Below are positions 2,270 through 32,382 of a DNA stretch of 45,059 nucleotides, in pieces (position 1 is the first letter of the stretch; the number at the start of each line of letters is the position of its first letter). A model generated the notes under the pieces. That model was not told the origin of the DNA. It saw nothing but the letters and a program-made list of their open reading frames with translations, and ran no database searches. The stretch comes from a virus: positions 1 through 45,059 of IMG/VR virus record IMGVR_UViG_3300010150_000036. One strand, given 5' to 3'. The translations under genes and the position numbers were made by a program.

Positions 2270-2419
2270 ATGGCAAGAAGTAAAGTTGGTCTCAGTGGCG
2301 TACAGTTTGTTGAAAGCAAACCCAAGAGAACAAGGCAAGGATCAGGGCAACACACTAAGTATGCAGCAACATCTCGTAATGGCGCTAAGAAGCGTTACAG
2401 GGGACAAGGTAGAGGATGA
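2270..2419 (+). CDS. Very basic 49-residue protein
   Basis: The product, beginning MARSKVGLSG and ending RYRGQGRG, has 13 Lys/Arg and only one acidic residue, with no hydrophobic segment. I recall similar short basic proteins in T4-like cyanophages at this place, without a function. The stop codon overlaps the next start as ATGA (2416-2419), so the gene is probably coupled to the 221-residue gene. The charge suggests binding to nucleic acid or to an acidic protein surface; this is inference. The frame is supported by the clean coupling and by the absence of another reading across 2270-2415. Confidence 0.75.
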   Translation: MARSKVGLSGVQFVESKPKRTRQGSGQHTKYAATSRNGAKKRYRGQGRG

Positions 2420-3081
2420 ATTTAATTTGCAATCTTCCTGCAGAGAAAGTTTGGGTTCGTAGGGAATACTTACGAGATCACCAAGACGGACATGGGGAGT
2501 TTGTAGAAGGCGTCTGGGTTGCTGCTAAAAGCATACCTGGGCGTGCTTTTTACTTTGAGACATACTTGCCCACATATGGAGCAATGTACGACAAACTCCC
2601 CATTAGTGCGTTTGTACGATCCCCCGAAACCCCAGTCATAGACATGAGTTTGGAGAATCTACAATTCTGGAATTGCATGGATTATGGTGTCATGGCAATC
2701 AACAAAGGATTTGTCTCATCTATGGACTGTGAGGTCTTCACTAGAGATCATGGTCTCATGAAGGGACAATACTTGTTTACACTTGATAACTACCATGCAA
2801 ATCCAGATGTAATAGACAACAATGTAAGTGAAGTGCCACAAGAGCACAAATCACATAATTGTATCGCATTGAACAATGGTCAGTATGCATTGTATCCTAA
2901 TAACAGGATGCGTCTGTATGACCTCTCTATCACCCCTGAAGAACCCAAGTTCCCCGACTTTAAAGTATCTACCATAGAATACCAAGTAGAGTCAGGAACG
3001 GACTGGGGACGCCTAGGAGACACTGACGATTATTTTTGGCGAACTCGCAATGAAAAAGAAAACATTGATAACAGTAATTGA
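2416..3081 (+). CDS. Conserved marine-phage protein of unknown function
   Basis: This 221-residue product has the composition of a soluble globular protein: several Trp and Tyr (KVWVRREYL at 11-19, LQFWNCMDYG at about 82-91), a YLFTLDNYHA section and a C-terminal WGRLGDTDDYFW motif. I recall proteins with the same motifs as conserved hypotheticals in cyanophages and other marine phages, but no activity is known to me. It is coupled to the 49-residue gene upstream (ATGA), and its 3' end overlaps the oxygenase gene by 32 bases. That tight packing suggests one transcript. Compared with the fibre genes it lacks Gly/Thr-rich repeats, so it is unlikely to be a fibre. Confidence 0.8.
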   Translation: MNLICNLPAEKVWVRREYLRDHQDGHGEFVEGVWVAAKSIPGRAFYFETYLPTYGAMYDKLPISAFVRSPETPVIDMSLENLQFWNCMDYGVMAINKGFVSSMDCEVFTRDHGLMKGQYLFTLDNYHANPDVIDNNVSEVPQEHKSHNCIALNNGQYALYPNNRMRLYDLSITPEEPKFPDFKVSTIEYQVESGTDWGRLGDTDDYFWRTRNEKENIDNSN

Positions 3082-6045: not shown

Positions 6046-9000
6046 ATGGCGGTTACAAAGAGATCAATTTCAACTCTGATTGAGACCCAACTCCCAGAGT
6101 TTATCAATACTGAGTACGAATTATTTGGTAAGTTTCTTACCAGATATTACGAGAGCCTTGAAATTCAAGGTGGTCCTTTAGATATTGCTAATAATTTAGA
6201 TGTCTACACAAACATTGATTATTACGAAAATAATCTGCTGAAACAAAGCACAACTGTTACTAGTAACCATACTGCTTCTGAGACTACTATTACTGTAGAT
6301 GATGCTACTTCGTTTCCAGAAGAGAATGGATATATTAAGATCGGGAATGAGATCTGCTTTTATAAAACTAGAACGGACAATTCTTTTACTAATGTTACCA
6401 GAGGTGTAACTGGAAACACAAAACTTGGTGACTTATATTCTACCACTGAATATGTAACTAGTCAAGCATCCCCCCACTCTGGTGGAGAACTAGTACAGAA
6501 TATCAGTAACTTATTTTTATATGCTTTTGTTAAGAACTTTGAGGAGCAGTATCTATCATCATTCCCAGAGAAATATCTTAAGAATGCTGTAGATAAAAGA
6601 ACTCTCATTAAAAACATCGGTCAGTTTTATAGATCGAAAGGTACTGAGCAGTCAATTCAATTCTTGTTCAATACTGTTGTAGAAGGTGGTGTTGACAATA
6701 GACCTACCGTATACAATCCATCTGATTTTACATACAAGTCTTCTAACTCTGATTGGACACAGGGTTATGCACTTCGTATCAAAGTATTGTCTGGTGATGT
6801 AAAATCACTGGTTGGAAAAGTAATTACACAAGAAGCATCTGATAGATATGGGTTTGCTTCTGCTACAGTTGATAATGTAAAATTTGATTCTAAAATAGAT
6901 GGCGAAGATACTTACAATCTTTTCCTTGCTACAGAAACATTAAATGGTTCTTTTGAGATTACAACCAAAACAGAATTGACACAGCAGATTTCTTCTGCTG
7001 CAGTTTCTGGTGATAGAGTTAATGTGGTATCCACTTTAGGATGGAAGGGCACTGGTTCTTTACTAATTGGAAATGAAACTTTTACATTTTTAGACAAAAA
7101 TGTAACTCAATTTACTATTAATACTAGAGATCAGGCAACTACACACACTGTAGGAACTCCAGTATATGATCCAATTGTAATTGGTAACTCTGATGTTACT
7201 ATGTTAGTATTTGGATTAGTATATAATCTATTACCGTCTAACCCACAACCATATGCTTCGGTTGGTGATAAAATTGAAGTATCCAATCCAGGTTTTGAAA
7301 CACAAGATACTAAAATTGTTTCTTCATCTGGTTTAAGATGGCGTCTGTCTCAAGCAAATGCAAAACCAACATCTCCAACAAATTCCACATATACTAACGG
7401 TCTTTCTAACCTTTCTACTGATATATCTGCTATATTCGCGGATGACCAATTCTATTATATTGCTTCTTCTGGATACCCATCATACGATATACTTGAAAAT
7501 GTAACTTCTATTCCAGGCAATCTTGCAGATCAAAAGATTCTCAAGTTAATCAGAAAAGAATCTATTAATACTACTGAAGTATATAAGTCACCAACAAATG
7601 ATTTTGGTATCTTTGTTAATGGCGTTAGAGCATATGGACACAAAGATACTGAAGAGATTTATTTTGGTAGATTAGAAGAAATTAAAGTTCTCACTCAAGG
7701 AATTACTTATAAGAATCCACCCGTTGTTCTTGTTAATGGTGTACCTGGCAGAGCAATTTCTAAACTAGCAGGACAGTTTGTAGAATCAGTCGAAATTATA
7801 GAACCAGGACTTTATGGTACTGTTCCATCTATTGAATTGATTTCTGGTAGAAATGCTATTGTTAAAGCAACTATCACTGGTGGACAAGTAACGGATATAC
7901 AGATCGATAATCCTGGAGAGTTCTATTCAACTCCTCCTTTAGTTGTCATTAGAGACAAAGCAGGTCAAGGTAGGTTAGCAGAATGGACAGCAGAAATTAC
8001 TGACGGAAAACTTGTAGGATTTACTCAAATTAATGGTGGTTCTTTTTACACTCAAGAAAATATTGATGTAGAAATTATTCCTATTGGTTCTGGAGCAACT
8101 GCAGTTGCACAGATCACAACATGGACTAAAGATAGGGTTAAGAATTTAAATTCTAGTTTAGATGATAATAATGGTTTTGTATTTTTGAATCGTAATAATG
8201 CACTTGAGTATGGTTATGCCCATGTTGCTAACCCCAAGTCATTGAGAGTTTTATTAAATGATAATCTAGATTCATTAGACCAAGAACCTACAACTAAGAC
8301 TCACTCACCTATCCTAGGGTTTGCATATGATGGTAATCCTATCTACGGACCTTTTGGATATACAGATCCTCTAGATTCTGTTAGTGATATCACTAGAATG
8401 ACCAGTAGTTATGGTCTTAGAACTGATAGACAGTTCGGTCCTACTGCTGGACAATATACACTAGGAACGTTTACACAAGATTATGAGTATAGACATAAGT
8501 CTGGTTCTTTGGATCAAAATAATGGTAGATTCTGTGTAACTCCTGATTTTCCAGAAGGAACATATGCATACTTCTTGACAATCAAAGAGGATCAAACACC
8601 AGTATTCCCATATATCATTGGCGAAAATTTTTATTCTCTTCCTGTAGACTCTAATTATAATTCAAACCTCGACCAAACAAATATCTCTAGAAATGTTGAA
8701 AGATTATTCACGCCTGGTCTATCATCTAATGGTGGTGGTTTTAACGGTGTCGTACAAGATCTAGAGTCTGGTAGTATTGATAGTGTTGAAGTAGTAGAAT
8801 CGACAGGAGCATTTTCTGTAGGGTCTCAATTAGTATTTGATAATACTGGAACAGAAGGTAACAATGCAGAAGCATCTGTATCATCTATTAATGGAAAAAC
8901 TGTTTCTAGTTTAGAAAGTTTTGAAAACAAAGCAGCAAAATTAACAATTACTATTCCTTCTTATGTGTTTGAAAGTGACAAATTGAGGCAACCTTCTTCT

Positions 9001-12000
9001 GGTGCGTTTGGAACTATCGTTGGCACTATTAGAAATGATAATACAATTTTAGTTAAAGATGTTAATGGTCAATTTAATAATACTGCAGCATTTGCAACTG
9101 ATATTAAAGTTTTAAGATTAACCCTTGACAAACCATCATCATACAACCAAGGTTCTATTATATCACTAACTGATGGTATTGTGACTACCAATGCATCTGG
9201 TGAAGTTTTAGAAAGTATATCTGATGGAAATACAGTTCTTGTTAAAGTATTAAGTGGAACATTCCAAACACAAGATGTTTTAGATAATTTCCTCAAGAGT
9301 GATAATTTATCAGATACTTCTGGTTCTAAAATTGACAATATTGATTATCTAAGCGATGGATTGATTCCATTTGATATTGATGACAATATCGGACTAATCA
9401 CAACAACAGAAGATCACAATCTTGGAGTTGGTGATAATATTAATGTTTCTGTTAATCCAAATGATGCTTCTAAGACTAGAACTTATTATGTCAGAAAAAG
9501 AATTTATCAGGAAATTGAGTTACAAACTCCAGTATATGACACCAATGTAGACTACGATGGATTGGGTAGACTTCTAATTGTAAATGCTGGTCTACTATAT
9601 CCAGTTGGAACATATACTAATGTTCCCATAAGTGGTGGTAGTGGTAGTGATGGAAAAGCAATTATTGTTGTTAGTCCACTAAATTCAGGAGATGCTACTG
9701 GTTATGTCTCTAGTGTACAACTTCAAAATGGTGGTTCTGGTTATAAGAGAGGAGATATTCTCTCTGTTGAAGATTCCGACTTAAACAGATCTACAGGATC
9801 TTCTACTCAAAGAGTAAAGTTTTTTGTTGATCATGTTGGTGTATCTAATGAAGCAACAACCATTGATGTTGTCAGTGCTGCTGATTATGCAAATAATGAT
9901 CTTCTTCTAATTAATGACGAAATTGTAAAAGTTGTATCTATTATCAACAACCAGGTTGGTAATGATACTTTATCTGTAGAACGAGCACAAGAAGGAACAA
10001 TTGCAGTAGATCATTATGACAATGCTCCTGTATCACTTTACAATGCAGGATACAATTTAAGTAGCACCTATACAGTAAATGGTAGTGAAACTATCATCTA
10101 TGATAGAAGTACACAAAAACTATTAGTAATCTATCCTTCTTCACAATCATTAAGTTCTTTACAACCAATTACAACACAAACAAGTTTCTTTGATGAAAGC
10201 ACTCCAAAGAAATTTGTAAAAGTTGTTAATGCTACAACACCAGAAAATAGATTTGAATTTAAGTTAGATCCATCAATGAGTATCTTTGGCACAGATGCTC
10301 CAAATCCGTTTGTGTCTGAATGGACTGTTAATCCAATTATTGAAGTACAAGAAGGATATCGTTATCTGTTTGATACTTCAGATTCATCTTTGACTGGTTC
10401 TCATTTAGACTTTAGTCCTAGTGGCAATTATAACATAATTGCAATTGAAAAGAAAGAGTCTACAGTTTCACAAGGTAATGCTGGATCTTTTGTTGACATG
10501 AAATTTGGATTTGGTTCTAGAATCTCAACAAACACATATACAGAAACCAAGCAATCAAATTTCTCAAATTATTTTTATTTTGATAGAAATGGAAACATTG
10601 CAAATAATGGTTCGTATTTGAGAGTTACAAGAGATCCTCTTTCTGGACCTAACATTGTAAATTTTGTATCACCAAAATCATTCTCATATTCTTTATCGTC
10701 ACATCCACAGTGGGATGGATCAGGAACTATTAGTTACACAACTGATGGACAGTTTGCTGTTGGGTCTATTGATAAAGTATCAGTTCAGAATATTGGAGCA
10801 AACTATAAAAAAGTTCCAATCGTTCTTGGTGCATATCCGAGCACCAAAAAAGTTGCAAGTGCAACAGTAAATTTTGACAGTACATTTAAAACCATCACAA
10901 GTGTCACAGTTGATAATACTGGAGACCATTATCAAAATCCAAAAGTTGTCATCTTAGAGGGTGATGGTAAGAATGCTGAGTTTGGCATTACATCTAGAGA
11001 TGGAAAAATTTTAGATATAATTGTAAAAAATCCTGGAAAAGGATATACGAAAGCACCCATTATTACAATAGTCGAATCTGACATAAAACTATTTGTAAGG
11101 GGTAGTAGAGTTGGTCTACCTAAGAATATAAAAATCGTTAAAAATGGAAGTTCTTTCCATAATGATAAAACTATTATTCCTGAGTATACTGGCAGTTATG
11201 TTTTAGCAGTAAAAGATTACACAAGTAACTTTCTTAAAGGAGAAAGTATAACACAAACAGTTAATGGTCAAGAAGTATTCTCTGCTATTGTTAGTGAATG
11301 GAGAGAAGGTTCAAATCTTCTTAAAATTTCAAACATTAATGGCAAACTTAGAAATGGTGTTTCTTTAGTAAGCAAGATTTCTAAGCAAACAGTAAACTTC
11401 CATCAAACATTCGTAACTCCATTTACTGTAGATGTAAAACCATATTCTGATAATACTGGAAGTTTCATTTCAGATAAAGGTAGAATTGGTAATGCAAATC
11501 AAAGAATCACGGATTCTTTCTTTTATCAAGATTACTCTTATGTTGTTAAGTCTAGATCTGCTATTGATGCATGGAGAGACTTAGTTAAAGAAACAACACA
11601 CCCTGCAGGATTTAAATTATTTGGTGAAGTAATTATTGATCCTAAAATTGAGGCACCTAATGGTATTGAGATGCCTGCAGAAATGCCAAATGCAAATCAT
11701 TTCTCTATCATTGAATTATGGGATCCAACAAAAAATAAAATTACTGTTGAGAGCACGAAGAGAACATTAACACAAACTATCATATCGACAGAAGATTATC
11801 GTTCTATTAGAGGTCCTGGTTCTGTTGATGTAAACGAGTTTGATTTACAAACATTAAGAGCAAGAGAATTATCCTTAGTTCAAGATGCAATTGATCCAAG
11901 TCCTTTCGATGGAACATTTAATGCTGATGGTCAGTTAGTAGGCACAAAAACATTTACATTATATAATAGTGGAACACCATACTCACCATATAGCACAGAA

Positions 12001-15000
12001 AATGTAATTGTAACATTAGATGGTGTTATTCAAGAACCAGGAGTTTCATTTACTATTTCAGGAAATCAAATTACTTTTGCAGCACCGCCATTAGGAGCAG
12101 ATGTTGTAAATGGACAAGAAACTCCTGCACAAAAAGTTTTAATTAGAAATGTAGAATTTAAAGATAATGTTTACAACGAAAAACATTTTAGAAAAATTAG
12201 AAACTTTTATCAAAGAGAAGGAACTTGGATTGATGCTGCTAACCAAATTGATTTAAATACTGATTTCATGGTTTCCGAAACTATCGGATATTTTGAAAAC
12301 AAGTATGGTTATGCAATTCAAGATGGGTCTATTCCATGGACTGCTATCGAGCAAAAGTTCACCGCAGACATGAGAAGATATTGTGATGCTTTACAACATG
12401 ATTTAAGATTTGGTGGTAATATTAAATCTAAAGATTTTTCTGACTTATTTAAAACTAAGTATAATGGACAAAAAACAGAATTTAACGATGCATTGCAATA
12501 TCTTGTTAGGTTGTCAAAGTTAGCGACAAGAAACTGGGATTGGATTGCAGTAGATGTTTCATATACTGCGGGCAGTGATATTATCACAATTAAAAATACA
12601 GATAATGTTATACTTGGTGCATATGTAAGTTCTGGTGATGCATTCCCATTAAGTTCTGGTATTAGAGTAACAGAAATTATTTCTGATACTCAAGTAAGAG
12701 TATCTGGACAAGCGTTGGCAACTAGCGCCACGGCACCAGCTGGTGCTGCTGGTCCTGGTATCACTTATTTGAGTGGCACACAATCTGGTGGCACCACAAC
12801 TCTGCCTACAGCAACTGGTGCTGTTACTTCACCAAATTCTTATACTATTCCTCCTGGTTCAACATTAGCAGTACCACAAATTTTTAGTGGTCTCAATCAA
12901 GTAACATTCTCACTAAGTGGAATTAATAATGGAACATATTATGATGCATCAAATCTAATTGAGAAGAACAAAGGTTATATTCTCGATTATGTTACTGGAT
13001 GGGCTGCTGCAAACCATCCATCTAAAACTGTCTACCCTAAGGAAGTCAATCTTTTAGTAGATAACATCGTTTTCCATCTTCGTTTTGGTGGTAATCGAAA
13101 ACTAGTAGAACAGGCAGAAAGATTATTTGTTACTTCTGGAACATTTGCTATCGATCAAGCAAAGTTAATTCTGACTGATTTGTGTGTTAAGGCAATGCGT
13201 CAAATCTTGCCTGGAACAACACCGTTCACAAATATTCAACCATTTACAGATTCTGAAGTTATTACGGATTCTCAAACTCCACTATGTGCAGAAGTAGAAT
13301 CTACGCTGAATACTTATTATGAAATTACAGAAGAAATTTTAGAAATTGGTCCCAATGTTATTGATCCTACACAAGTAAATCCACCTAAGACTGGTTACTT
13401 TGCTACTAGTCAAAGTGTTTATACAAACTATAACATATTACCAGATGTAGAACTAGTTAATAAAGAATGTGAAGATGTAGTTTCTGCTTTAACTGTTTAT
13501 GCAGGCATCATGAAAGATGCTATGATCAATGGAATAGTTACACCTCCAACTCTACCTGATTTTATTGATGGTGAAACTACAGACTTTGAACTGTATTGGG
13601 ATGATGATGGTTCTGCTGTGTCTCTAACTGAGACAGATGAGACATTATTAGTTGCTCTGAACGGTGTTATCCAAAGAACAAAGCATACTGCAAATGAACC
13701 AGCATTTGATTCTTACTTTGTAGATACATCTGTAGTACCAAACATAATTAAGTTCAGTACTCCTCCTATCTGGGACCAAGATCTAGGTGCTAGAACTATT
13801 CTAGAACCAACACAAGTAGAAAAATTCTTTGCAGTCAATGTTGGTAATCAGAAACGATATACTATCGATACTGCTAATATTGATGGCGAAACTGAAGGAC
13901 CACATCAAATTGTTAGTATTGCAGAAGATACTATTCTCAATATTGATGATGAAAGATTCTTATTAGTAATCTTAAATGGTGTTATTCAAAAGCGTGGTAT
14001 TGCAAATAGTGGTTCTTATGATGTAGTTGGTTCTGTAATTACTTTTGCAACACCAATAAGAATAGAAGATGTTGTTGACATTCGTCTTTTCTATGGTAGA
14101 GATATCGAACCAACCGTAAATATTCACAATTTTGTTGTTAATGGATATTTGTATCCAAAACAAATTACAATTGTAGGTACAGATGCTGGTAGTAATTTCA
14201 ATAATTTTGTCGTTAATAGTGATTATGCACTAACAACATATGAAAATTTCTATCTATATCAAGAAGATTCAAGTAATGTTTATCCTATAGGTAAAGTATA
14301 CGATTGGGAAATTGTAAATGCAAATACTTTAATACTAAGAGTATACACCAATACTGTGGATTTTGATCCTAGTAGAGCACTCTATGCAAAAACTTTAGGA
14401 GCATTTGAATCAGTATTACATACATTTGATCCAAGTGTTACTATTAGTATTTCTTCTCTTGATTCTCAACTTGTAAAAATTGACAGATCTTATTTCAAAG
14501 GAGATATAAGAAAATCAAATGATCTAGTACAGAGGAAAGGATTCTTTGGATTAAATCCTGGAGATAAAATTAAAGTGGATGGAGAATCTACTTACAGAAC
14601 TATCAAGTCCACACCAGGAAAAGTAGATACTAAAGATTATAGAAGCAACTCAGATGCTGCTAACTCCATATATGGTTCTTTTGGAATTACTAGATATAAT
14701 GAAACCACTTTTGGTGAAGGATTAAGTGTTGAGTCAGAAATTGCTAATGGTTCCGTTAGTAAACTTATTTGGAATGAAAGACAAGTAAGAGAAGATGTTC
14801 AAAATATTTCTTCTCATACTATTACAAATGCAACATACGATCCAGCAACAGGAATATTTGTAGGAACTATTCCCAATCATGGATTTTTATCACAGCAATT
14901 TCTTAAATTTAAGAACAATTCTGTAGTATTTACATGTGATTTAGACAATAATGCTACGGAAAAATCTTACCCCAGAGAAGGTTCTGATCCGTTTGCTAAT

Positions 15001-16932
15001 ACATGGATTCTTATTGAGTCTGTTACTACAAATACATTTACTATCAATGTTGGTATTTCTAGCGATACCAGTGCTCATACTTTTGTAACATCTACTCCTG
15101 GTGGATTACTCAGGGGAACTGAAATTCTTTATAGATTTTTCAGACCCACTGCATACAACTATTATATCCCACCAAATATTGAGTTTATTCCTAAAAACTC
15201 TAATGGTGGTGGTGCTAGAGCAAGAGTTGTTACAAGCAAAGGAGAAATTATTGGTGTACAACTATTATCAGGAGGATCTGGATACACAGAAGCACCTATT
15301 GTTGTTGTAACACGCAAATATAATGTTATCAAGCAAGATGATATTAAAGTATCTCTTGTAAAATTAAATGTACAATCGATTGTAAGTCAGTCACTGACAA
15401 TCAGTAGCTTTATCTCTGCAATTGAACTACCACCACCAGAACAAGCACTTATTTCTACTATTGTTCTGAGATCTCCATCTAGTTCATCTGATATCCTGGA
15501 AATGGATATTGAGCCAGATCCAATTGTCGATGGAAATGCAATGCCAGAGGGTGAAACTCAACCTGGCATGGGTAATATTGCATACATCGAACCAGATCCA
15601 GTCATCGATGCATTGAATCTCAGAGATTCTGATAGAGATATTATTAGAATCGTTGCTGTAAGAGCAGAAGACATTGTATCATTTAGTGCTTTACAGACTA
15701 ATAGAGTTGCAACAGCAATTGTACAACTTGAAGTTGATAACTCTAGAATTACATCTACTAATTCTTCTACTGCTCCTGGTGGATATCTACAAGCACCTGC
15801 CAATATTGGTGACAGTATTGTTTATATTAGCAATACTGGTAGATTCTCAACTAACGGAAAACTACTTGTCGGTAATGAAGTTGTTCGTTATCTTAGAAAG
15901 ACTGAGGACAGATTCCTTAGTGTCACAAGAGGACTTGATAATACACTTGAAAGTAGTTGGCCTGCAGGAACATTTGTTCGCGAAATTGATGATTATGTAA
16001 GCGTTGCATTTGGTGGTGTTCAATCCTTCGTCAGTGAGACCAGTGTTCTATCTGGTGTTACATCAGGCAGATCAGAAAGACTAACTCAATCCCAATCACA
16101 GTCTATAATTGCATCTTCGTCTACTGTATCACTACAAAAAACAGCAATTATTCAAGTTGAGAGTGGCATCATTTCTATTTCTGATGTCAAGTTCTTCAGA
16201 CAAACACAGACTACTTCCGAGAGTTCTGAACCAACTACAATTCAATCGGTAAGTATTGCCGCGTTGAATCAAGTACAAGTAGAAACTAATTCTGTTATCT
16301 TGGGTAGTGCAATTAGAGAACTTCTTTTCTTTACACCTCCTGGTGGTTTTGTAGATTACTTCCAAGAATCAATCTTCTTTACTAATCCTGTCCCAACTAG
16401 ATTAAATGGAGATGTCACTCTTGTAACTAGAAATGTTACTTTAAGAGACGGATCTTTTATTGAAATTAGAAATATTCGCGAAGACGAACAAGCAAATTAT
16501 ATTGGTAATTACAATATCGGAAACCTCGGTGCAAACATTTCTAGTTGGAATTATGTTTCCAAGGATGAGGGTGTAATACCTTCCAGTGGAGTGAGTATTG
16601 GGGAATTTGAAAGACTATTTGCTAGTATGACTATAAAAGATTTTGAATTGAGAGGATACTCTAACTACACTCTAACGGGTGATAAGTTCTCCCTTGGTAT
16701 TCCAACTACAAATAATCCAGTTACTATTACATCTTCTACTGGTACGATTGGAGCAGTTATCGTAGTTCAGAATACAACATACTTCCCAAGCGCGGGATAT
16801 TTGTTTACCAGTGGTGGATCTGTCATTCAATACACGGACAAGACTGCTACTGAGTTTACTGGTTGTACTTTGTATAGCGGTCTAAATAATATCTCTAATG
16901 GTGAGGAAATTATTCCTTTTACAATCTCGTAA
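6046..16932 (+). CDS. Giant 3628-residue modular baseplate protein at the gp7 position
   Basis: T4 has gene 7 (1032 residues) between 6 and 8, so I infer a gp7-like wedge role; I cannot show sequence homology. The N-terminus (MAVTKRSISTLIETQLPEFI) and the helical NIGQFYRSKGTEQSIQFLF section (about 190-210) match large cyanophage structural proteins as I recall them. Then follow G-x-GY beta repeats (about 540-680), a YHYH-like domain (about 754-867, FAYDGNPIYGPFGY), and a cupredoxin-like relic (about 1440-1560). Next come two helical units ending in RFGGN (about 2105-2125 and 2300-2360), several LNGVIQ modules and an HGF/FTC module (about 2922-3020). An IGNE-type module recurs five times, once near each end. 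A single uninterrupted frame of 10.9 kb with coupled starts supports one polypeptide. Confidence 0.9.
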   Translation: MAVTKRSISTLIETQLPEFINTEYELFGKFLTRYYESLEIQGGPLDIANNLDVYTNIDYYENNLLKQSTTVTSNHTASETTITVDDATSFPEENGYIKIGNEICFYKTRTDNSFTNVTRGVTGNTKLGDLYSTTEYVTSQASPHSGGELVQNISNLFLYAFVKNFEEQYLSSFPEKYLKNAVDKRTLIKNIGQFYRSKGTEQSIQFLFNTVVEGGVDNRPTVYNPSDFTYKSSNSDWTQGYALRIKVLSGDVKSLVGKVITQEASDRYGFASATVDNVKFDSKIDGEDTYNLFLATETLNGSFEITTKTELTQQISSAAVSGDRVNVVSTLGWKGTGSLLIGNETFTFLDKNVTQFTINTRDQATTHTVGTPVYDPIVIGNSDVTMLVFGLVYNLLPSNPQPYASVGDKIEVSNPGFETQDTKIVSSSGLRWRLSQANAKPTSPTNSTYTNGLSNLSTDISAIFADDQFYYIASSGYPSYDILENVTSIPGNLADQKILKLIRKESINTTEVYKSPTNDFGIFVNGVRAYGHKDTEEIYFGRLEEIKVLTQGITYKNPPVVLVNGVPGRAISKLAGQFVESVEIIEPGLYGTVPSIELISGRNAIVKATITGGQVTDIQIDNPGEFYSTPPLVVIRDKAGQGRLAEWTAEITDGKLVGFTQINGGSFYTQENIDVEIIPIGSGATAVAQITTWTKDRVKNLNSSLDDNNGFVFLNRNNALEYGYAHVANPKSLRVLLNDNLDSLDQEPTTKTHSPILGFAYDGNPIYGPFGYTDPLDSVSDITRMTSSYGLRTDRQFGPTAGQYTLGTFTQDYEYRHKSGSLDQNNGRFCVTPDFPEGTYAYFLTIKEDQTPVFPYIIGENFYSLPVDSNYNSNLDQTNISRNVERLFTPGLSSNGGGFNGVVQDLESGSIDSVEVVESTGAFSVGSQLVFDNTGTEGNNAEASVSSINGKTVSSLESFENKAAKLTITIPSYVFESDKLRQPSSGAFGTIVGTIRNDNTILVKDVNGQFNNTAAFATDIKVLRLTLDKPSSYNQGSIISLTDGIVTTNASGEVLESISDGNTVLVKVLSGTFQTQDVLDNFLKSDNLSDTSGSKIDNIDYLSDGLIPFDIDDNIGLITTTEDHNLGVGDNINVSVNPNDASKTRTYYVRKRIYQEIELQTPVYDTNVDYDGLGRLLIVNAGLLYPVGTYTNVPISGGSGSDGKAIIVVSPLNSGDATGYVSSVQLQNGGSGYKRGDILSVEDSDLNRSTGSSTQRVKFFVDHVGVSNEATTIDVVSAADYANNDLLLINDEIVKVVSIINNQVGNDTLSVERAQEGTIAVDHYDNAPVSLYNAGYNLSSTYTVNGSETIIYDRSTQKLLVIYPSSQSLSSLQPITTQTSFFDESTPKKFVKVVNATTPENRFEFKLDPSMSIFGTDAPNPFVSEWTVNPIIEVQEGYRYLFDTSDSSLTGSHLDFSPSGNYNIIAIEKKESTVSQGNAGSFVDMKFGFGSRISTNTYTETKQSNFSNYFYFDRNGNIANNGSYLRVTRDPLSGPNIVNFVSPKSFSYSLSSHPQWDGSGTISYTTDGQFAVGSIDKVSVQNIGANYKKVPIVLGAYPSTKKVASATVNFDSTFKTITSVTVDNTGDHYQNPKVVILEGDGKNAEFGITSRDGKILDIIVKNPGKGYTKAPIITIVESDIKLFVRGSRVGLPKNIKIVKNGSSFHNDKTIIPEYTGSYVLAVKDYTSNFLKGESITQTVNGQEVFSAIVSEWREGSNLLKISNINGKLRNGVSLVSKISKQTVNFHQTFVTPFTVDVKPYSDNTGSFISDKGRIGNANQRITDSFFYQDYSYVVKSRSAIDAWRDLVKETTHPAGFKLFGEVIIDPKIEAPNGIEMPAEMPNANHFSIIELWDPTKNKITVESTKRTLTQTIISTEDYRSIRGPGSVDVNEFDLQTLRARELSLVQDAIDPSPFDGTFNADGQLVGTKTFTLYNSGTPYSPYSTENVIVTLDGVIQEPGVSFTISGNQITFAAPPLGADVVNGQETPAQKVLIRNVEFKDNVYNEKHFRKIRNFYQREGTWIDAANQIDLNTDFMVSETIGYFENKYGYAIQDGSIPWTAIEQKFTADMRRYCDALQHDLRFGGNIKSKDFSDLFKTKYNGQKTEFNDALQYLVRLSKLATRNWDWIAVDVSYTAGSDIITIKNTDNVILGAYVSSGDAFPLSSGIRVTEIISDTQVRVSGQALATSATAPAGAAGPGITYLSGTQSGGTTTLPTATGAVTSPNSYTIPPGSTLAVPQIFSGLNQVTFSLSGINNGTYYDASNLIEKNKGYILDYVTGWAAANHPSKTVYPKEVNLLVDNIVFHLRFGGNRKLVEQAERLFVTSGTFAIDQAKLILTDLCVKAMRQILPGTTPFTNIQPFTDSEVITDSQTPLCAEVESTLNTYYEITEEILEIGPNVIDPTQVNPPKTGYFATSQSVYTNYNILPDVELVNKECEDVVSALTVYAGIMKDAMINGIVTPPTLPDFIDGETTDFELYWDDDGSAVSLTETDETLLVALNGVIQRTKHTANEPAFDSYFVDTSVVPNIIKFSTPPIWDQDLGARTILEPTQVEKFFAVNVGNQKRYTIDTANIDGETEGPHQIVSIAEDTILNIDDERFLLVILNGVIQKRGIANSGSYDVVGSVITFATPIRIEDVVDIRLFYGRDIEPTVNIHNFVVNGYLYPKQITIVGTDAGSNFNNFVVNSDYALTTYENFYLYQEDSSNVYPIGKVYDWEIVNANTLILRVYTNTVDFDPSRALYAKTLGAFESVLHTFDPSVTISISSLDSQLVKIDRSYFKGDIRKSNDLVQRKGFFGLNPGDKIKVDGESTYRTIKSTPGKVDTKDYRSNSDAANSIYGSFGITRYNETTFGEGLSVESEIANGSVSKLIWNERQVREDVQNISSHTITNATYDPATGIFVGTIPNHGFLSQQFLKFKNNSVVFTCDLDNNATEKSYPREGSDPFANTWILIESVTTNTFTINVGISSDTSAHTFVTSTPGGLLRGTEILYRFFRPTAYNYYIPPNIEFIPKNSNGGGARARVVTSKGEIIGVQLLSGGSGYTEAPIVVVTRKYNVIKQDDIKVSLVKLNVQSIVSQSLTISSFISAIELPPPEQALISTIVLRSPSSSSDILEMDIEPDPIVDGNAMPEGETQPGMGNIAYIEPDPVIDALNLRDSDRDIIRIVAVRAEDIVSFSALQTNRVATAIVQLEVDNSRITSTNSSTAPGGYLQAPANIGDSIVYISNTGRFSTNGKLLVGNEVVRYLRKTEDRFLSVTRGLDNTLESSWPAGTFVREIDDYVSVAFGGVQSFVSETSVLSGVTSGRSERLTQSQSQSIIASSSTVSLQKTAIIQVESGIISISDVKFFRQTQTTSESSEPTTIQSVSIAALNQVQVETNSVILGSAIRELLFFTPPGGFVDYFQESIFFTNPVPTRLNGDVTLVTRNVTLRDGSFIEIRNIREDEQANYIGNYNIGNLGANISSWNYVSKDEGVIPSSGVSIGEFERLFASMTIKDFELRGYSNYTLTGDKFSLGIPTTNNPVTITSSTGTIGAVIVVQNTTYFPSAGYLFTSGGSVIQYTDKTATEFTGCTLYSGLNNISNGEEIIPFTIS
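8305..8645 (+). other. YHYH-like domain within the giant protein
   Basis: Residues about 754-867 carry the order typical of phage YHYH domains: GFAYDGNPIYGPFGY, a Gly/Arg-rich link, GRFCVTPDFPEGTYAYFLT and a PVFPYIIG end. The naming YHYH motif itself is altered here to YEYRH. The domain's role is not known to me; it recurs in large tail proteins of marine phages. Confidence 0.75.
14809..15105 (+). repeat. HGF/FTC beta module in the giant protein
   Basis: About 99 residues with the pattern ATYDPATG, NHGF, VVFTCDLDNNATEKSYPREG, then TNTFTINVG and AHTFV. The same pattern appears at least four times in tandem and once alone in the fibre protein starting at 32932. The match is clear in protein and weaker in DNA, so the modules were exchanged or duplicated long ago. 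Confidence 0.85.
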
Positions 16933-27035: not shown

Positions 27036-27251
27036 ATGAGTTATATTAAAGTTAAGGGACATGACGGTCTTGTAAGAGACGAAAACACAGGTGCCATCAT
27101 TATTAATGACAATTCTGCCATTGAAGGTAGAAGAAAATCAAAACAGTTGAGTTCCGCGTTAGACGACATAAATACATTGAAGGATGAAGTATCTGAAATT
27201 AAGTCCCTTCTGCACGAGTTAATAAAAAATGCCAGCAATTCAAGTAGCTAG
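27036..27251 (+). CDS. Small protein with C-terminal coiled coil
   Basis: The 71-residue product has an N-terminal strand-like section (YIKVKGHDGLVRDENTGAII) and then a helix of heptad character (ALDDINTLKDEVSEIKSLLH, about 41-60), ending in a Ser/Asn tail. I recall homologues between the large structural genes of T4-like cyanophages. It starts nine bases after the DUF4815-type gene and overlaps the fibre gene by 23 bases, so translation of the three is probably coupled. A short coiled-coil protein here may join or chaperone trimeric fibre parts, but no function is established. Confidence 0.8.
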   Translation: MSYIKVKGHDGLVRDENTGAIIINDNSAIEGRRKSKQLSSALDDINTLKDEVSEIKSLLHELIKNASNSSS

Positions 27252-30200
27252 AACCGATACCTTTGAACAACAAAGGTTAAAAATTAATGAACTTGGTTCA
27301 AATTTGTTCAATGTTACTTCTGGTGGAAGTGATCTTGCCACAGGTAATTTAAAAATGGGTGACGGATCTATCAATGCTCCTTCACTAGCATTTGATAATG
27401 ACCAAACTTTAGGTCTCTACAGACCTCAAACTGGTGTCATTGCTTATGTTTCACAATCAAAACTACTATACGAGTTATCTGATAGTGGATTTTTAAGTTT
27501 TAGAAATTTTGTTTTCCGAAAAACGGAAATTAATGATAGTGGTATTGCTATCGCAACTACAGGGCAAAACTATGACCCTGGAACATACAACGAAATTTCT
27601 GTTATTGGTGGTACAGGAACTAGCGCAACTTTAAATATTACAGTTGGAGATTTTACAGGAACAGAAGTTTCTGGTACAAACTACACACCAGGAACATATT
27701 TCAGTCTTCCTATTGTTGGAGGAAACACTGCTACTAGAAGTTTTGTTGATTTCACAGTAGATAATATTGTAGTTAATATTGTTGGTGGATCTGGTTATAC
27801 AGATGGAACATATAATGGAGTTGCGGTAACAAATGTTTCTTCAAGTGGATCTAGTGCAACTGCTGACATTATTGTTAGTGGTGGTATTGCATATTCAGGA
27901 ACCATTTCAGGTGGTTCTGGATACACAGATGGAAATTACACACAAGGATTAAGAAACCAAGCAACACAAACATTCATAGTCACTGTTAGTGGCGGACCTG
28001 GATCATATGCATTTGTTATTGATAGTGTAACACAACCAGCACTTGCCCTTGAAGCAGCAAATACTTATAGATTTGATGTATCAGATGCTTCAAACTCTGG
28101 TCACAATTTATTCTTACAAGGTGCTGGTCAAGTTGGAACTCCTCCTGCAGGATTAACTTTAACTAATGTAGGTACTTCTGGTACACAAGGAGCATATGTT
28201 GATGTAATTGTAGAGAATGGTTATTCATTAACTTCTGCATCGTACAACTGCCTTGCTCACACTGGTGCTCAGATGGGTGCTGATATCACTTTCACTACAG
28301 GAACTCCTGGGGTGTATGGAAGTGGTGCAGTAGCAGATATTGTAATTAGTGGTGGAGCACTAACAGCACTTACTTTTGTTTCTCAGGGAACTGATTATAA
28401 AGCAACTGATGTTTTAGAAATTCCACCATTCACAGTTGGTGCTGGAACTGGTGCTGAATATCTAATTAATGGAGTTACACCAAATGGTTCAATTACTAGT
28501 GTAACATTTACTGACTCTGGTCAAGATTATTTACTTAATGACACACTGTCAGTTAACGCCGCAGATGTTGGTGGTACAGGTGCTGGAGCAGAATTTACAA
28601 TTACAACTAATCCTGGAAAGGTAAGTAATTTTGTATTTACAGCAGCTGCCACTGATTACCTAGCAAATGATGTTCTTACACTGGCAACAGAGCAAACTGG
28701 TGTTGCTGCTACTCTTGTAGGAGAAGACAGTGGTAATACAGTACCAGAACTTAGTTTCACTATTGCAGATGTATCAAACATTATTCCTGGTTCTGTAATA
28801 ACAGTTACTTCTGGATCTGGAGCACTTGGTGTAGGAACTACATTAGTACAAGGTATTGATTACGATACTAATGTAGTAACTATCGATAATAATCCAGCAA
28901 CATCTGGAGCAGTAGTATTAACATTCACACCTCCATATGGCAATCCGTCTACGCCATTTACATACACAGTTGATAGTGTTGGACCTATTGACTCAGTAAC
29001 CATTAGTAATGGAGGTGTTGGTTATTTTAATGGAGATATTTTAAGTGTATCGGGTACAGATTTAGTTCAACCAATTGTGTATCCAGTTACTGCGATTGGA
29101 TTACAAGAGTTAACATTTGCCAGTAATTCAGTTACTACAGGAACATTTACAACTTCACAAACCATCAAATTAAGAGATGGTACTCCAACAGCGACTACTA
29201 CTAGTAGTTCAACTCAATTAACTGCTAACTCTGTTGGACCATTAGCAGCAACATTAACCACTACTGTATCACAGATTACACTTTCTAGTACTGCTGGTAT
29301 TTCTGCTGGGTATATTGTAACTGCTACAGGAACTGGGCAGTTAGGAGCAAATATAACTGTATCTAGTGTTGATAGTGGCACACAATTAACTATATCTTCA
29401 AACCCAATTGCATCAGGTGCTGCAGATCTTACATTTACAGAAGATCTAACTCAAACATACACTGGTCTAGCAACCATAACCAACAGTGGAAGTGGTAATT
29501 CAGAAACGGTAACAGTCAGCAGAGATGCTCTTGGTAATGTTTCCAATGCCTTCCCAGATCAAGTTGGATTCTTTTATGCAATTGGAGAAACTCTAACTAT
29601 TGCTGGAAACTTAGTTGGTGGTGCAACACCAGCAGATGACATTACATTAACAATTGATAGTGTTACAGATATTACAGCAACTCAAGTTAGAGAAGTCAAT
29701 GAGAGTGCTGGATTTATTACTTCTATTGTTGTTGATGAAGGAAATTATTTTGATAATGGCATATTTGTTATTTCAGGATCTACATCTCCACAATATACTT
29801 CATTAACTGCTTCTGCTACGGGTGGAAGATTTGGTTATTTGATTGATGTCGGTGCTGGTCAAGTATTTAACCCAGACATATCACTTTTTGTTGGCAACAC
29901 TTACAAGTTTGATGTATCAGATGCTTCCATGTCTGGACATAGTTTCAGATTCTCGGAATTTCCAGGTGGTATTCATGGAAATGGATTTATTGACAATGTA
30001 TCATCTACACTAGTTGCAGGTAGTACATCAGTAACGGTTTCAGATAGTACTGGTATTGTACCAGGAATGCTAGTTACATTAGATAGTGGTAGTGCTACAT
30101 TACAAGCAGACACCAAAGTTGCTTCTGTCGTTGACGCTACAACAATTACATTTGACAAAGCACCAACAATTGGTGGTTCTGTTGTTATTGACTTTAGAGG

Positions 30201-32382
30201 ATATGCTTTTGAAGAAGGTGTATCAGAAAGTCCTGGAGAAATATCAATAAAGATTCTTTCTACAACACCAACATTATATTATTATTCTAATAATTCAGAT
30301 CCTGCATATGCAAGTGCTAGTGGTTCTCCTGGAAACGAAGCTTCAATAGCAATAGATCCAAATAATCCAAAAACATTTGGATCTGGATTTGCACTTGATG
30401 TTATTGCTGTAGGTTCTATTGACATCATTAAAGCAGATATTACAAATGGACAATTAACTACCAATAGTGTTAATGCAGTTACTGGTCAATATACTGATAT
30501 TACTGCTAGCAGTAATGTAAATGCCTCAGTAGTTAACACAACTAATGTAAATGCAACTGTGTTTGGAACTGGTACTGGTCTTACTATTTCTGGTGGTGCT
30601 ATTGCAATTAATGGTCCTGATATTAATATTGGATCTTCAATGAGTGTTGAAAATAGCACTGGAAATATCACAACTTCTGGTGTTATTAAATCTACACAGG
30701 AATTTAATTCCAACACAAAATTAACAATTGTAGATGCAACAATTGCCACTTTAGGAAGTGAAGATCTTTTACTGCAACCTGCTGCAAACCGTGTTGCTAA
30801 AACTTTAGGTGATACTGCTTTTGTAATTCCCTCTGGAAATACTGCTACAAGACCTGCATCACCAATCGCACAAGACGGTGCAATTAGATTTAACACACAA
30901 ACAAATCAATATGAAGGATATAGTGCATCATCTTCTTCGTGGTCTTCCCTAGGTGGGGTTCGTGACTTAGATGGCAACACATATATCCTAGCAGAAGCAT
31001 CTATTGGTGCAAATGATAACACATTATATTTTTACAATGATGGTGTTAATACAGCAAAAGTAACTCCATCATACTTAGACTTTTTTAGTGTTAAGAAAAT
31101 TCGTTCTAGTAATACACTTGCTCCTCTTTATGTTGAGTGGTCTGCCAATACTGTTGTAGCAGAAGGAGATTATTTAAAGCATAAGCAAAATGTTTATGAA
31201 GTTGCGGTTGGTGGTGCGGGTACTACAGCATCCACTGGAAATCAACCAACACATACTACAGGAACATCAGCAAATGGTACTACTCAGTTAACTTGGGTTG
31301 CTTCATCTATTGATTCATTAACTTTTGAAGAGATTACAGAAGTTAAAATTGGACCTACTGATAGTACATCATTAGTAGTCAATCAAAAGTTAAGGTTCTC
31401 TGAGAATACAATTTCGACAGATACCGATGATCTAATTCTACAACCAAATTCTGGTCAGAAAACAGTAATTAGTTCTACTAGTTCACTTGTACTACCTGTT
31501 GGTGATGTTAACCAGAAAGGAGCAGCAGTTCAAGGTTCTGTTCGATTTAATACTACTGATAGTCAGTTTGAAGGTTATGACGGAGCACAATGGGGTTCCC
31601 TTGGAGGAGTAAAAGACTCTGACCAAGATACTTTAATCAAAGCAGAAACTGCTCCTGGTTCAGATGAGGATACATTATTCTTCTTCAATGCAAATACAGA
31701 AACAGTAAGATTGTCAGTCAATGGACTTGAGTTTACGGGCATCGATACAATTAATGTTTCTGCTGCAGGTGTTCCTGGGGCAGAGACTTTAGCAATTAAT
31801 GCTGATACCATCACTCTAGATAATAATGCGACTACAATTGATAATACAGATTCCAATGTATCTTTTATCTTTACATCAAAGCAATTTTTAGATCTTGGTG
31901 TTTCTTCTGGTCTCAACAACGATCCTGTTATTAGACTAGATGATCAAGGAGATGTATTCTTGAATACTGGGTTTGGAACGGGTGTTTATAATGGAGTTAA
32001 AATTTTTGATGGAGACCTGAAAGAATTTGAACTTTCTGATTATAAAATTGTTACTGGTGATATTACCTTTACAAAAGGTACAGTAGATCAAGGAGCAATT
32101 ATTCTTTATGATCCATCTATTGCTATTGGATGCAAAGTAACTGTTGCAGCATTAAATACTACAACAGGTGATAAAGAACTTGTTGAGTATACTGTTATTG
32201 ATAATGGGACTGATATTTCGTTTACTGATTTTGGTAATGTCAAAACTGGAGCAGAACAATTCTCCTCCACATTTGATTTTAACGCCTCAAATAATATCAG
32301 ATTAAACTTGACTGCAGATAGTGGATTAACTACTGGAGATAATATTATTATCAGCACAACCGTAAACATCTATAAGAGATAA
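27229..32382 (+). CDS. 1717-residue tail-fibre protein with cupredoxin-like domains
   Basis: The N-terminus (MPAIQVARTDTFEQQRLKIN, then SLAFDNDQTLGLYR) is typical of large cyanophage fibre proteins. Beta modules with GGSGYTDG repeats follow. A cupredoxin-like domain at about 245-357 has H292, C341, H344 and M349. Three I-x-PG modules (about 508-567, 671-739, 925-991) follow, and a second cupredoxin-like domain (about 890-1035) has lost Cys and His. Two collar-like duplicates (about 1178-1265 and 1398-1488) each hold RFNT, EGY and SLGGV. The C-terminus is beta-rich and lacks a visible self-cleaving chaperone domain. Probably a trimeric, virion-exposed fibre or fibre connector. Three bases separate it from the next gene. 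Confidence 0.87.
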   Translation: MPAIQVARTDTFEQQRLKINELGSNLFNVTSGGSDLATGNLKMGDGSINAPSLAFDNDQTLGLYRPQTGVIAYVSQSKLLYELSDSGFLSFRNFVFRKTEINDSGIAIATTGQNYDPGTYNEISVIGGTGTSATLNITVGDFTGTEVSGTNYTPGTYFSLPIVGGNTATRSFVDFTVDNIVVNIVGGSGYTDGTYNGVAVTNVSSSGSSATADIIVSGGIAYSGTISGGSGYTDGNYTQGLRNQATQTFIVTVSGGPGSYAFVIDSVTQPALALEAANTYRFDVSDASNSGHNLFLQGAGQVGTPPAGLTLTNVGTSGTQGAYVDVIVENGYSLTSASYNCLAHTGAQMGADITFTTGTPGVYGSGAVADIVISGGALTALTFVSQGTDYKATDVLEIPPFTVGAGTGAEYLINGVTPNGSITSVTFTDSGQDYLLNDTLSVNAADVGGTGAGAEFTITTNPGKVSNFVFTAAATDYLANDVLTLATEQTGVAATLVGEDSGNTVPELSFTIADVSNIIPGSVITVTSGSGALGVGTTLVQGIDYDTNVVTIDNNPATSGAVVLTFTPPYGNPSTPFTYTVDSVGPIDSVTISNGGVGYFNGDILSVSGTDLVQPIVYPVTAIGLQELTFASNSVTTGTFTTSQTIKLRDGTPTATTTSSSTQLTANSVGPLAATLTTTVSQITLSSTAGISAGYIVTATGTGQLGANITVSSVDSGTQLTISSNPIASGAADLTFTEDLTQTYTGLATITNSGSGNSETVTVSRDALGNVSNAFPDQVGFFYAIGETLTIAGNLVGGATPADDITLTIDSVTDITATQVREVNESAGFITSIVVDEGNYFDNGIFVISGSTSPQYTSLTASATGGRFGYLIDVGAGQVFNPDISLFVGNTYKFDVSDASMSGHSFRFSEFPGGIHGNGFIDNVSSTLVAGSTSVTVSDSTGIVPGMLVTLDSGSATLQADTKVASVVDATTITFDKAPTIGGSVVIDFRGYAFEEGVSESPGEISIKILSTTPTLYYYSNNSDPAYASASGSPGNEASIAIDPNNPKTFGSGFALDVIAVGSIDIIKADITNGQLTTNSVNAVTGQYTDITASSNVNASVVNTTNVNATVFGTGTGLTISGGAIAINGPDINIGSSMSVENSTGNITTSGVIKSTQEFNSNTKLTIVDATIATLGSEDLLLQPAANRVAKTLGDTAFVIPSGNTATRPASPIAQDGAIRFNTQTNQYEGYSASSSSWSSLGGVRDLDGNTYILAEASIGANDNTLYFYNDGVNTAKVTPSYLDFFSVKKIRSSNTLAPLYVEWSANTVVAEGDYLKHKQNVYEVAVGGAGTTASTGNQPTHTTGTSANGTTQLTWVASSIDSLTFEEITEVKIGPTDSTSLVVNQKLRFSENTISTDTDDLILQPNSGQKTVISSTSSLVLPVGDVNQKGAAVQGSVRFNTTDSQFEGYDGAQWGSLGGVKDSDQDTLIKAETAPGSDEDTLFFFNANTETVRLSVNGLEFTGIDTINVSAAGVPGAETLAINADTITLDNNATTIDNTDSNVSFIFTSKQFLDLGVSSGLNNDPVIRLDDQGDVFLNTGFGTGVYNGVKIFDGDLKEFELSDYKIVTGDITFTKGTVDQGAIILYDPSIAIGCKVTVAALNTTTGDKELVEYTVIDNGTDISFTDFGNVKTGAEQFSSTFDFNASNNIRLNLTADSGLTTGDNIIISTTVNIYKR
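27961..28300 (+). other. Cupredoxin-like domain with plastocyanin-type ligand spacing
   Basis: The domain has TFIVTVSGG, TYRFDVSDASNSGHNLFLQ and then SYNCLAHTGAQMGADITF. The His at 292 (SGHNL), Cys at 341, His at 344 and Met at 349 reproduce the order of type-1 copper ligands; C-x2-H-x4-M is the plastocyanin spacing. Copper binding is inference. Confidence 0.65.
30760..31690 (+). repeat. Two diverged copies of a collar-like module in the fibre
   Basis: Copy one (about 30760-31020) and copy two (about 31420-31690) each run LLLQP/LILQP, a PSG/PVG turn, AIRFNT or SVRFNT, EGY, SLGGV-x-D and TLYFYN/TLFFFN. They are about a quarter-kilobase each, separated by a 400-base link with HKQNVYEVA. Similar short forms occur near the start of the genes at 43340 and 44233. 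Confidence 0.8.

What the first reader, a model, noticed from the sequence alone, without database searches (positions are those of the whole stretch)
28066..28290. Plastocyanin-type copper site signature inside a phage tail fibre
In the 1717-residue fibre protein, a cupredoxin-like section has H292, then C341-x2-H344-x4-M349. The C-x2-H-x4-M spacing and the upstream His are those of plastocyanin. Cupredoxin-like modules with a degraded site are, as I recall, common in marine phage fibres; the complete Cys-His-Met set is what stands out. If it binds copper, the virion of a phage of photosynthetic hosts would carry a metal-bound surface domain. Copper binding and any redox role are inference.
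Basis: partly seen in the sequence, partly recalled or inferred. Interest (0 to 1): 0.72.

Follow-up and report, generated by a model that had tools for sequence, protein, structure and literature searches.

The report
Copper-site domain in cyanophage virion protein
A large structural protein of a marine cyanobacterium-infecting virus contains a small domain that looks like the blue copper protein plastocyanin, with all four copper-holding residues in place; hundreds of related marine viruses carry the same domain and most keep the site, so these virus particles may carry bound copper, which has not been tested in any paper found here.

Summary
ORF 27229-32382 (1717 aa, T4-like cyanophage virion protein, phrog_6005) has H292, C341, H344 and M349, a C-x2-H-x4-M motif. 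The protein has only 2 Cys, 6 His and 6 Met, and shuffles give the motif at about 2e-5. AlphaFold2 with 65 natural relatives gives a confident all-beta sandwich (pLDDT 90, pTM 0.86). Its best PDB matches are copper cupredoxins, and the four residues sit at the canonical cupredoxin positions. Complete sites are the rule: 285 of about 296 compact modules found without using the ligands. The usual loop is amicyanin-like C-x2-H-x2-M (253 of 285); the plastocyanin spacing is confined to this phage and four near relatives. Phages of Pelagibacter and Methylophilales carry the domain too, so photosynthesis is not its common factor. A second module in the same protein keeps only H904. In 84 such second modules Cys/His never persist without the upstream His, and 37 have Glu for Met. 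Co-loss argues for one metal site under selection. Best reading: a virion cupredoxin family with a copper-type site, serving a structural or surface-binding role rather than plastocyanin-like electron transfer. Metal binding and function are untested.

The parts
27229..32382 (+). 1717-aa virion structural protein (phrog_6005) that carries the modules
   Evidence: orthologues in Sf-CH1b and other cyanophages
27973..28290 (+). module 1: compact cupredoxin domain, residues 249-354
   Evidence: HMM hit, E 2.3e-41 (the profile contains this sequence); AlphaFold2 pLDDT 90.1, pTM 0.86; Foldseek top hits are cupredoxins
28102..28104 (+). H292, upstream His ligand, just before the strand at model residues 51-55
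   Evidence: aligned to the plastocyanin ligand His
28249..28251 (+). C341, thiolate ligand, last residue of the strand at model residues 94-98
28258..28260 (+). H344, second His ligand in the ligand loop
28273..28275 (+). M349, axial Met ligand at the end of the ligand loop
   Evidence: column invariant in A3 though rows were not chosen for it
29806..30357 (+). module 2 (residues ~860-1043): cupredoxin-like copy, site lost in this phage (H904 kept; S1020 where the Cys would be)
   Evidence: HMM hit 6e-12; AlphaFold2 pLDDT 92.8, same strand order but no clear PDB match
29986..30198 (+). inserted all-beta segment of about 70 aa inside module 2 (residues ~920-990)
   Evidence: strands at model residues 67-137
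10309..10539 (+). degenerate third cupredoxin-like stretch in the 3628-aa baseplate-region protein; no ligands
   Evidence: search with A1, E 4e-9

Best explanation
Residues ~249-354 form a cupredoxin domain with an intact type-1-like metal site (H292, C341, H344, M349). It belongs to a large, apparently undescribed family of modules built into tail, baseplate and fibre proteins of marine phages. Shown by computation: the residues, the predicted fold, the placement of the ligands along the strands, and long-term conservation and joint loss of the ligand set. Inferred: that the site is filled with copper, from the host cell or from seawater after lysis. Most likely mechanism (inferred): bound metal ties the ligand loop to the sandwich, giving a rigid, exposed metal-capped tip that stabilises the virion module or makes contact with the host surface. 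A tuned electron-transfer role like that of plastocyanin is less likely, because ligand-loop length and even the axial ligand vary and because phages of non-photosynthetic hosts carry the module.
For: Fold: AlphaFold2 pLDDT 90.1, pTM 0.86, all-beta; H292 just before a strand, C341 at the end of a strand, H344/M349 in the following loop before the last strand. Foldseek against the PDB: Cu nitrite reductase 3.0e-4, then rusticyanins, multicopper oxidases, and further down an azurin carrying the plastocyanin loop CSPHQGAGM. Profile comparison with 27 PF00127 proteins: probability 90.6%, all four ligands aligned one to one; score 33.9 against a maximum of 17.5 in 120 shuffles. Conservation: with rows chosen for the first His and the Cys only, the H344 and M349 columns are still invariant. 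A search with the N-terminal half alone, which contains no ligand, found 285 complete compact modules against about 9 without; at ~60% clustering 72 of 81 are complete, 73 counting one with a longer loop. Ligand codons vary synonymously (CAT/CAC, TGT/TGC) while the residue is fixed (complete modules only). 271 of 285 modules have exactly one Cys, so a disulphide is not the reason. Coupling in module 2: Cys/His present in 49 copies, all with the upstream His; Cys/His pair absent in 35, of which only 11 keep it.
Against: No metal measurement exists. Masking the four ligand columns drops the profile score to noise (16.1), so sequence homology to plastocyanins beyond the site is not shown. Foldseek TM-scores are moderate (about 0.55). 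The window module scores in no Pfam family. Fisher's p for co-loss (6e-13) ignores shared ancestry. No role is shown.
Confidence: 0.68

Rival explanations
1. The domain is only a building block. The four residues are kept for packing, and the virion copy carries no metal.
For: Second modules and distant modules persist without the ligands; phage fibres commonly recruit sandwich domains as spacers (general knowledge).
Against: If the residues served the fold they should be needed in all copies, but 24 of 84 second modules lose all of them; where kept they are kept as a set, and two His plus a single Cys and a Met at a loop tip are not typical packing residues.
Confidence: 0.15
2. The site binds a metal other than copper (zinc, nickel, iron), or the Cys is used chemically as a reactive thiol.
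For: Cupredoxin sites accept Zn and other ions in vitro (general knowledge); many second modules have Glu in place of Met, which would suit harder ions.
Against: Cys-His2-Met in a cupredoxin fold is the defining type-1 copper set; the invariant Met in module 1 favours copper.
Confidence: 0.12
3. The domain mimics plastocyanin and exchanges electrons with host photosynthetic or respiratory partners.
For: Plastocyanin-type loop spacing in this phage; host clade is Synechococcus; a ferredoxin gene is present in the window.
Against: Held inside a 1717-aa virion protein; loop length varies (x2, x3, x4); present in phages of Pelagibacter and Methylophilales and in bacterial surface-type proteins.
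Confidence: 0.04

Closest known systems
Plastocyanin (PF00127, PetE), including the cyanophage-encoded PetE
   Same: Order and spacing of ligands: H, then C-x2-H-x4-M; ligand loop before the last strand; profile alignment puts all four ligands together.
   Different: A free ~100-aa electron carrier; here an internal domain of a virion protein, with no significant sequence similarity outside the ligands and no PF00127 hit.
Amicyanin-type loops (C-x2-H-x2-M; spacing from general knowledge)
   Same: Loop of most members of the phage family (253 of 285).
   Different: The window copy itself has the longer x4 loop; host and context differ.
Rusticyanin and cupredoxin domains of Cu nitrite reductase and multicopper oxidases
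   Same: Best fold matches of the predicted structure.
   Different: 10-18% identity, TM-score about 0.5; different loops.
Iron-binding (HxH) phage tail fibres and the Trojan/Ferrojan Horse hypothesis (PMC11705849)
   Same: Idea of a metal-binding domain on a marine phage fibre.
   Different: HxH iron sites in a tail fibre, not a Cys-His2-Met site in a cupredoxin domain.

Membership tests
Cupredoxin fold superfamily | Cupredoxin beta-sandwich | tested here: met
   AlphaFold2 pLDDT 90.1, pTM 0.86 and cupredoxins as the top Foldseek matches; moderate TM-scores
Cupredoxin fold superfamily | His before a strand, Cys at the end of the penultimate strand, His and Met in the next loop | tested here: met
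   Positions on the model and one-to-one alignment with 27 PF00127 proteins; distances not measured
Type-1 (blue) copper proteins | Binds copper with the characteristic spectrum | not testable with these tools
   Needs the expressed protein
PF00127 Copper-bind (plastocyanin/azurin family) | Score above the family's curated cut-off | tested here: not met
   No hit for the window at E<=10; 8 of 66 relatives weakly, best 0.0037
Plastocyanin | Small free-standing exported electron carrier | tested here: not met
   Internal domain of a 1717-aa virion protein
Plastocyanin | Ligand spacing C-x2-H-x4-M with upstream His | tested here: met
   H292-C341 spacing of 49
Marine phage virion cupredoxin module (described here) | TYRFDxSDxS-type motif, H, then C-x2-H-x(2-4)-M | tested here: met

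The most novel reading that the evidence does not exclude
Marine phages of several host groups carry copper on their virions in a dedicated cupredoxin family. In the phrog_6005 proteins a paralogous second copy diversifies the site (Met to Glu, longer loops, or loss). The virions are thus copper ligands, and the metal matters for stability or host contact.
Probability: 0.45. Interest if true: 0.8.

Novelty: new variant of a known kind. Interest (0 to 1): 0.62.

Why it matters
No paper found in the open-access library reports a cupredoxin as part of a virion. If these abundant phages carry copper, virions become part of the copper budget of surface seawater and copper could affect infectivity. 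No Pfam model recognises the window module, so hundreds of phage proteins carry an essentially unannotated domain with a simple, testable prediction.

Tried and rejected
Chance motif: rejected. Disulphide role of the Cys: rejected, one Cys per module as a rule. Pfam and NCBIfam naming: no hit for the window. Direct PDB sequence search: plastocyanins only at E 0.3-0.7, with unrelated proteins ranking above them, so not used as proof. Profile comparison with ligand columns masked fell to noise, so homology beyond the site is not claimed. The module 2 structure search gave no clear PDB match, so 'fold kept, site lost' rests on sequence homology and strand order. That proteins losing the module 1 site keep Cys/His in module 2 (4 of 4) is too few to claim compensation. 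'Cellular' homologues in Prochlorococcus single-cell genomes: at least one contig (189,106 bp, L194 = L248) is also an IMG/VR record, so probably a cyanophage genome.

Full report
Check of the observation. With 2 Cys, 6 His and 6 Met in the protein, C-x2-H-x4-M is expected 2.4e-5 times and was seen in 4 of 200,000 shuffles. It is the only such motif in the seven large proteins of the window. The gene is phrog_6005, a virion structural protein, lying among baseplate and tail-fibre genes; the window is colinear with Synechococcus phage Sf-CH1b (81.5% over 24 kb).

Relatives. Tblastn found the module in 40 phage records with the window copy as query and in 354 with a commoner copy, nearly all marine cyanophages; the named others include phages of Pelagibacter and Methylophilales. 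All 17 relatives first read keep His, Cys, His and a Met, though the Met loop length varies. An HMM survey gave 185 complete modules among about 191 read through both halves.

Survey not selected on the ligands. To avoid choosing complete sites by their ligands, the N-terminal half alone (ending before the first His) was used in three further scans and in an HMM search; loci of the earlier, full-length scans were pooled with these. In compact modules the full set is present in 285; two more have a longer loop; about nine have lost it (with L259 and L453 reread). At about 60% clustering, 72 of 81 are complete. Loop lengths H-x2-M 253, x3 25, x4 5: the plastocyanin spacing is the exception, found here and in four near relatives. 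Ligand codons differ synonymously. The scans keep best-scoring loci, so the figure is for this family, not for the whole superfamily: among 12 weaker cyanophage-isolate hits about half the modules have lost the site.

Fold. AlphaFold2 on the window copy with 65 natural relatives gave pLDDT 90.1 and pTM 0.86. H292 precedes a strand, C341 ends the penultimate strand, and H344 and M349 lie in the loop before the last strand, the cupredoxin arrangement. Foldseek's first sixteen PDB matches are all copper cupredoxins or multicopper oxidases (best 3.0e-4, TM 0.55); only the first is below 0.001. Profile comparison with 27 PF00127 proteins aligned all four ligands well above shuffled controls, but the signal lies in the ligand columns. 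Fold and ligand order are therefore the case for a cupredoxin; common descent with plastocyanin is not shown.

The second copy. Residues ~860-1043 hold a second module with an inserted beta segment. In this phage it keeps H904 only. Across 84 second modules, 12 are His-Cys-His-Met, 37 have Glu for Met with a longer loop (C-x5/6-H-x2-E), 11 keep only the first His and 24 have lost all. Cys/His are never kept without the upstream His, which lies well over 100 residues away in sequence (49 of 49, against 11 of 35 when Cys/His are gone; p 6e-13 without correction for ancestry). This is what one shared metal site predicts, and it shows that the ligands are dispensable for keeping the module.

Mechanism. 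Shown: domain, site, selection. Inferred: copper occupancy (about 0.7) and a structural or surface-contact role (about 0.4). Variation in loop length and axial ligand, and spread to phages of non-photosynthetic hosts and to bacterial surface-type proteins, speak against tuned electron transfer.

Literature. Seven of the ten searches in the open-access library looked for a cupredoxin, plastocyanin-like or copper domain in a virion and found no report; the nearest idea is iron-binding tail fibres (PMC11705849). T4-like cyanophage virion proteomes were published for S-SM1 and others (PMC3037559), but detection of this protein was not checked. Subscription papers were not searchable.

Noticed in passing
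window 6046-16932: The 3628-aa baseplate-region protein carries a YHYH domain (PF14240, residues 688-848, E 3e-32). In phage Syn30 (L486) a YHYH-like stretch is flanked by an intact and a degraded cupredoxin module.
   Followed up: partly
window 2416-3081: Ferredoxin-type auxiliary gene (phrog_3704, E 5.6e-119).
   Followed up: no
L044, L281, L359 (second modules): Second modules with C-x6-H-x2-M and, in 37 copies of other loci, C-x5/6-H-x2-E: a possible natural Met-to-Glu axial variant.
   Followed up: partly
L177, L179, L191: The same module in surface-type proteins on marine bacterial contigs (SAR116, Bacteroidetes, betaproteobacterial MAG); phage origin of these contigs was not excluded.
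   Followed up: partly
L194 / L248 / L207: A 189,106-bp contig filed as a Prochlorococcus single-cell genome is also an IMG/VR record, so likely a cyanophage genome; it codes a PF00127 plastocyanin as well as the virion module.
   Followed up: partly
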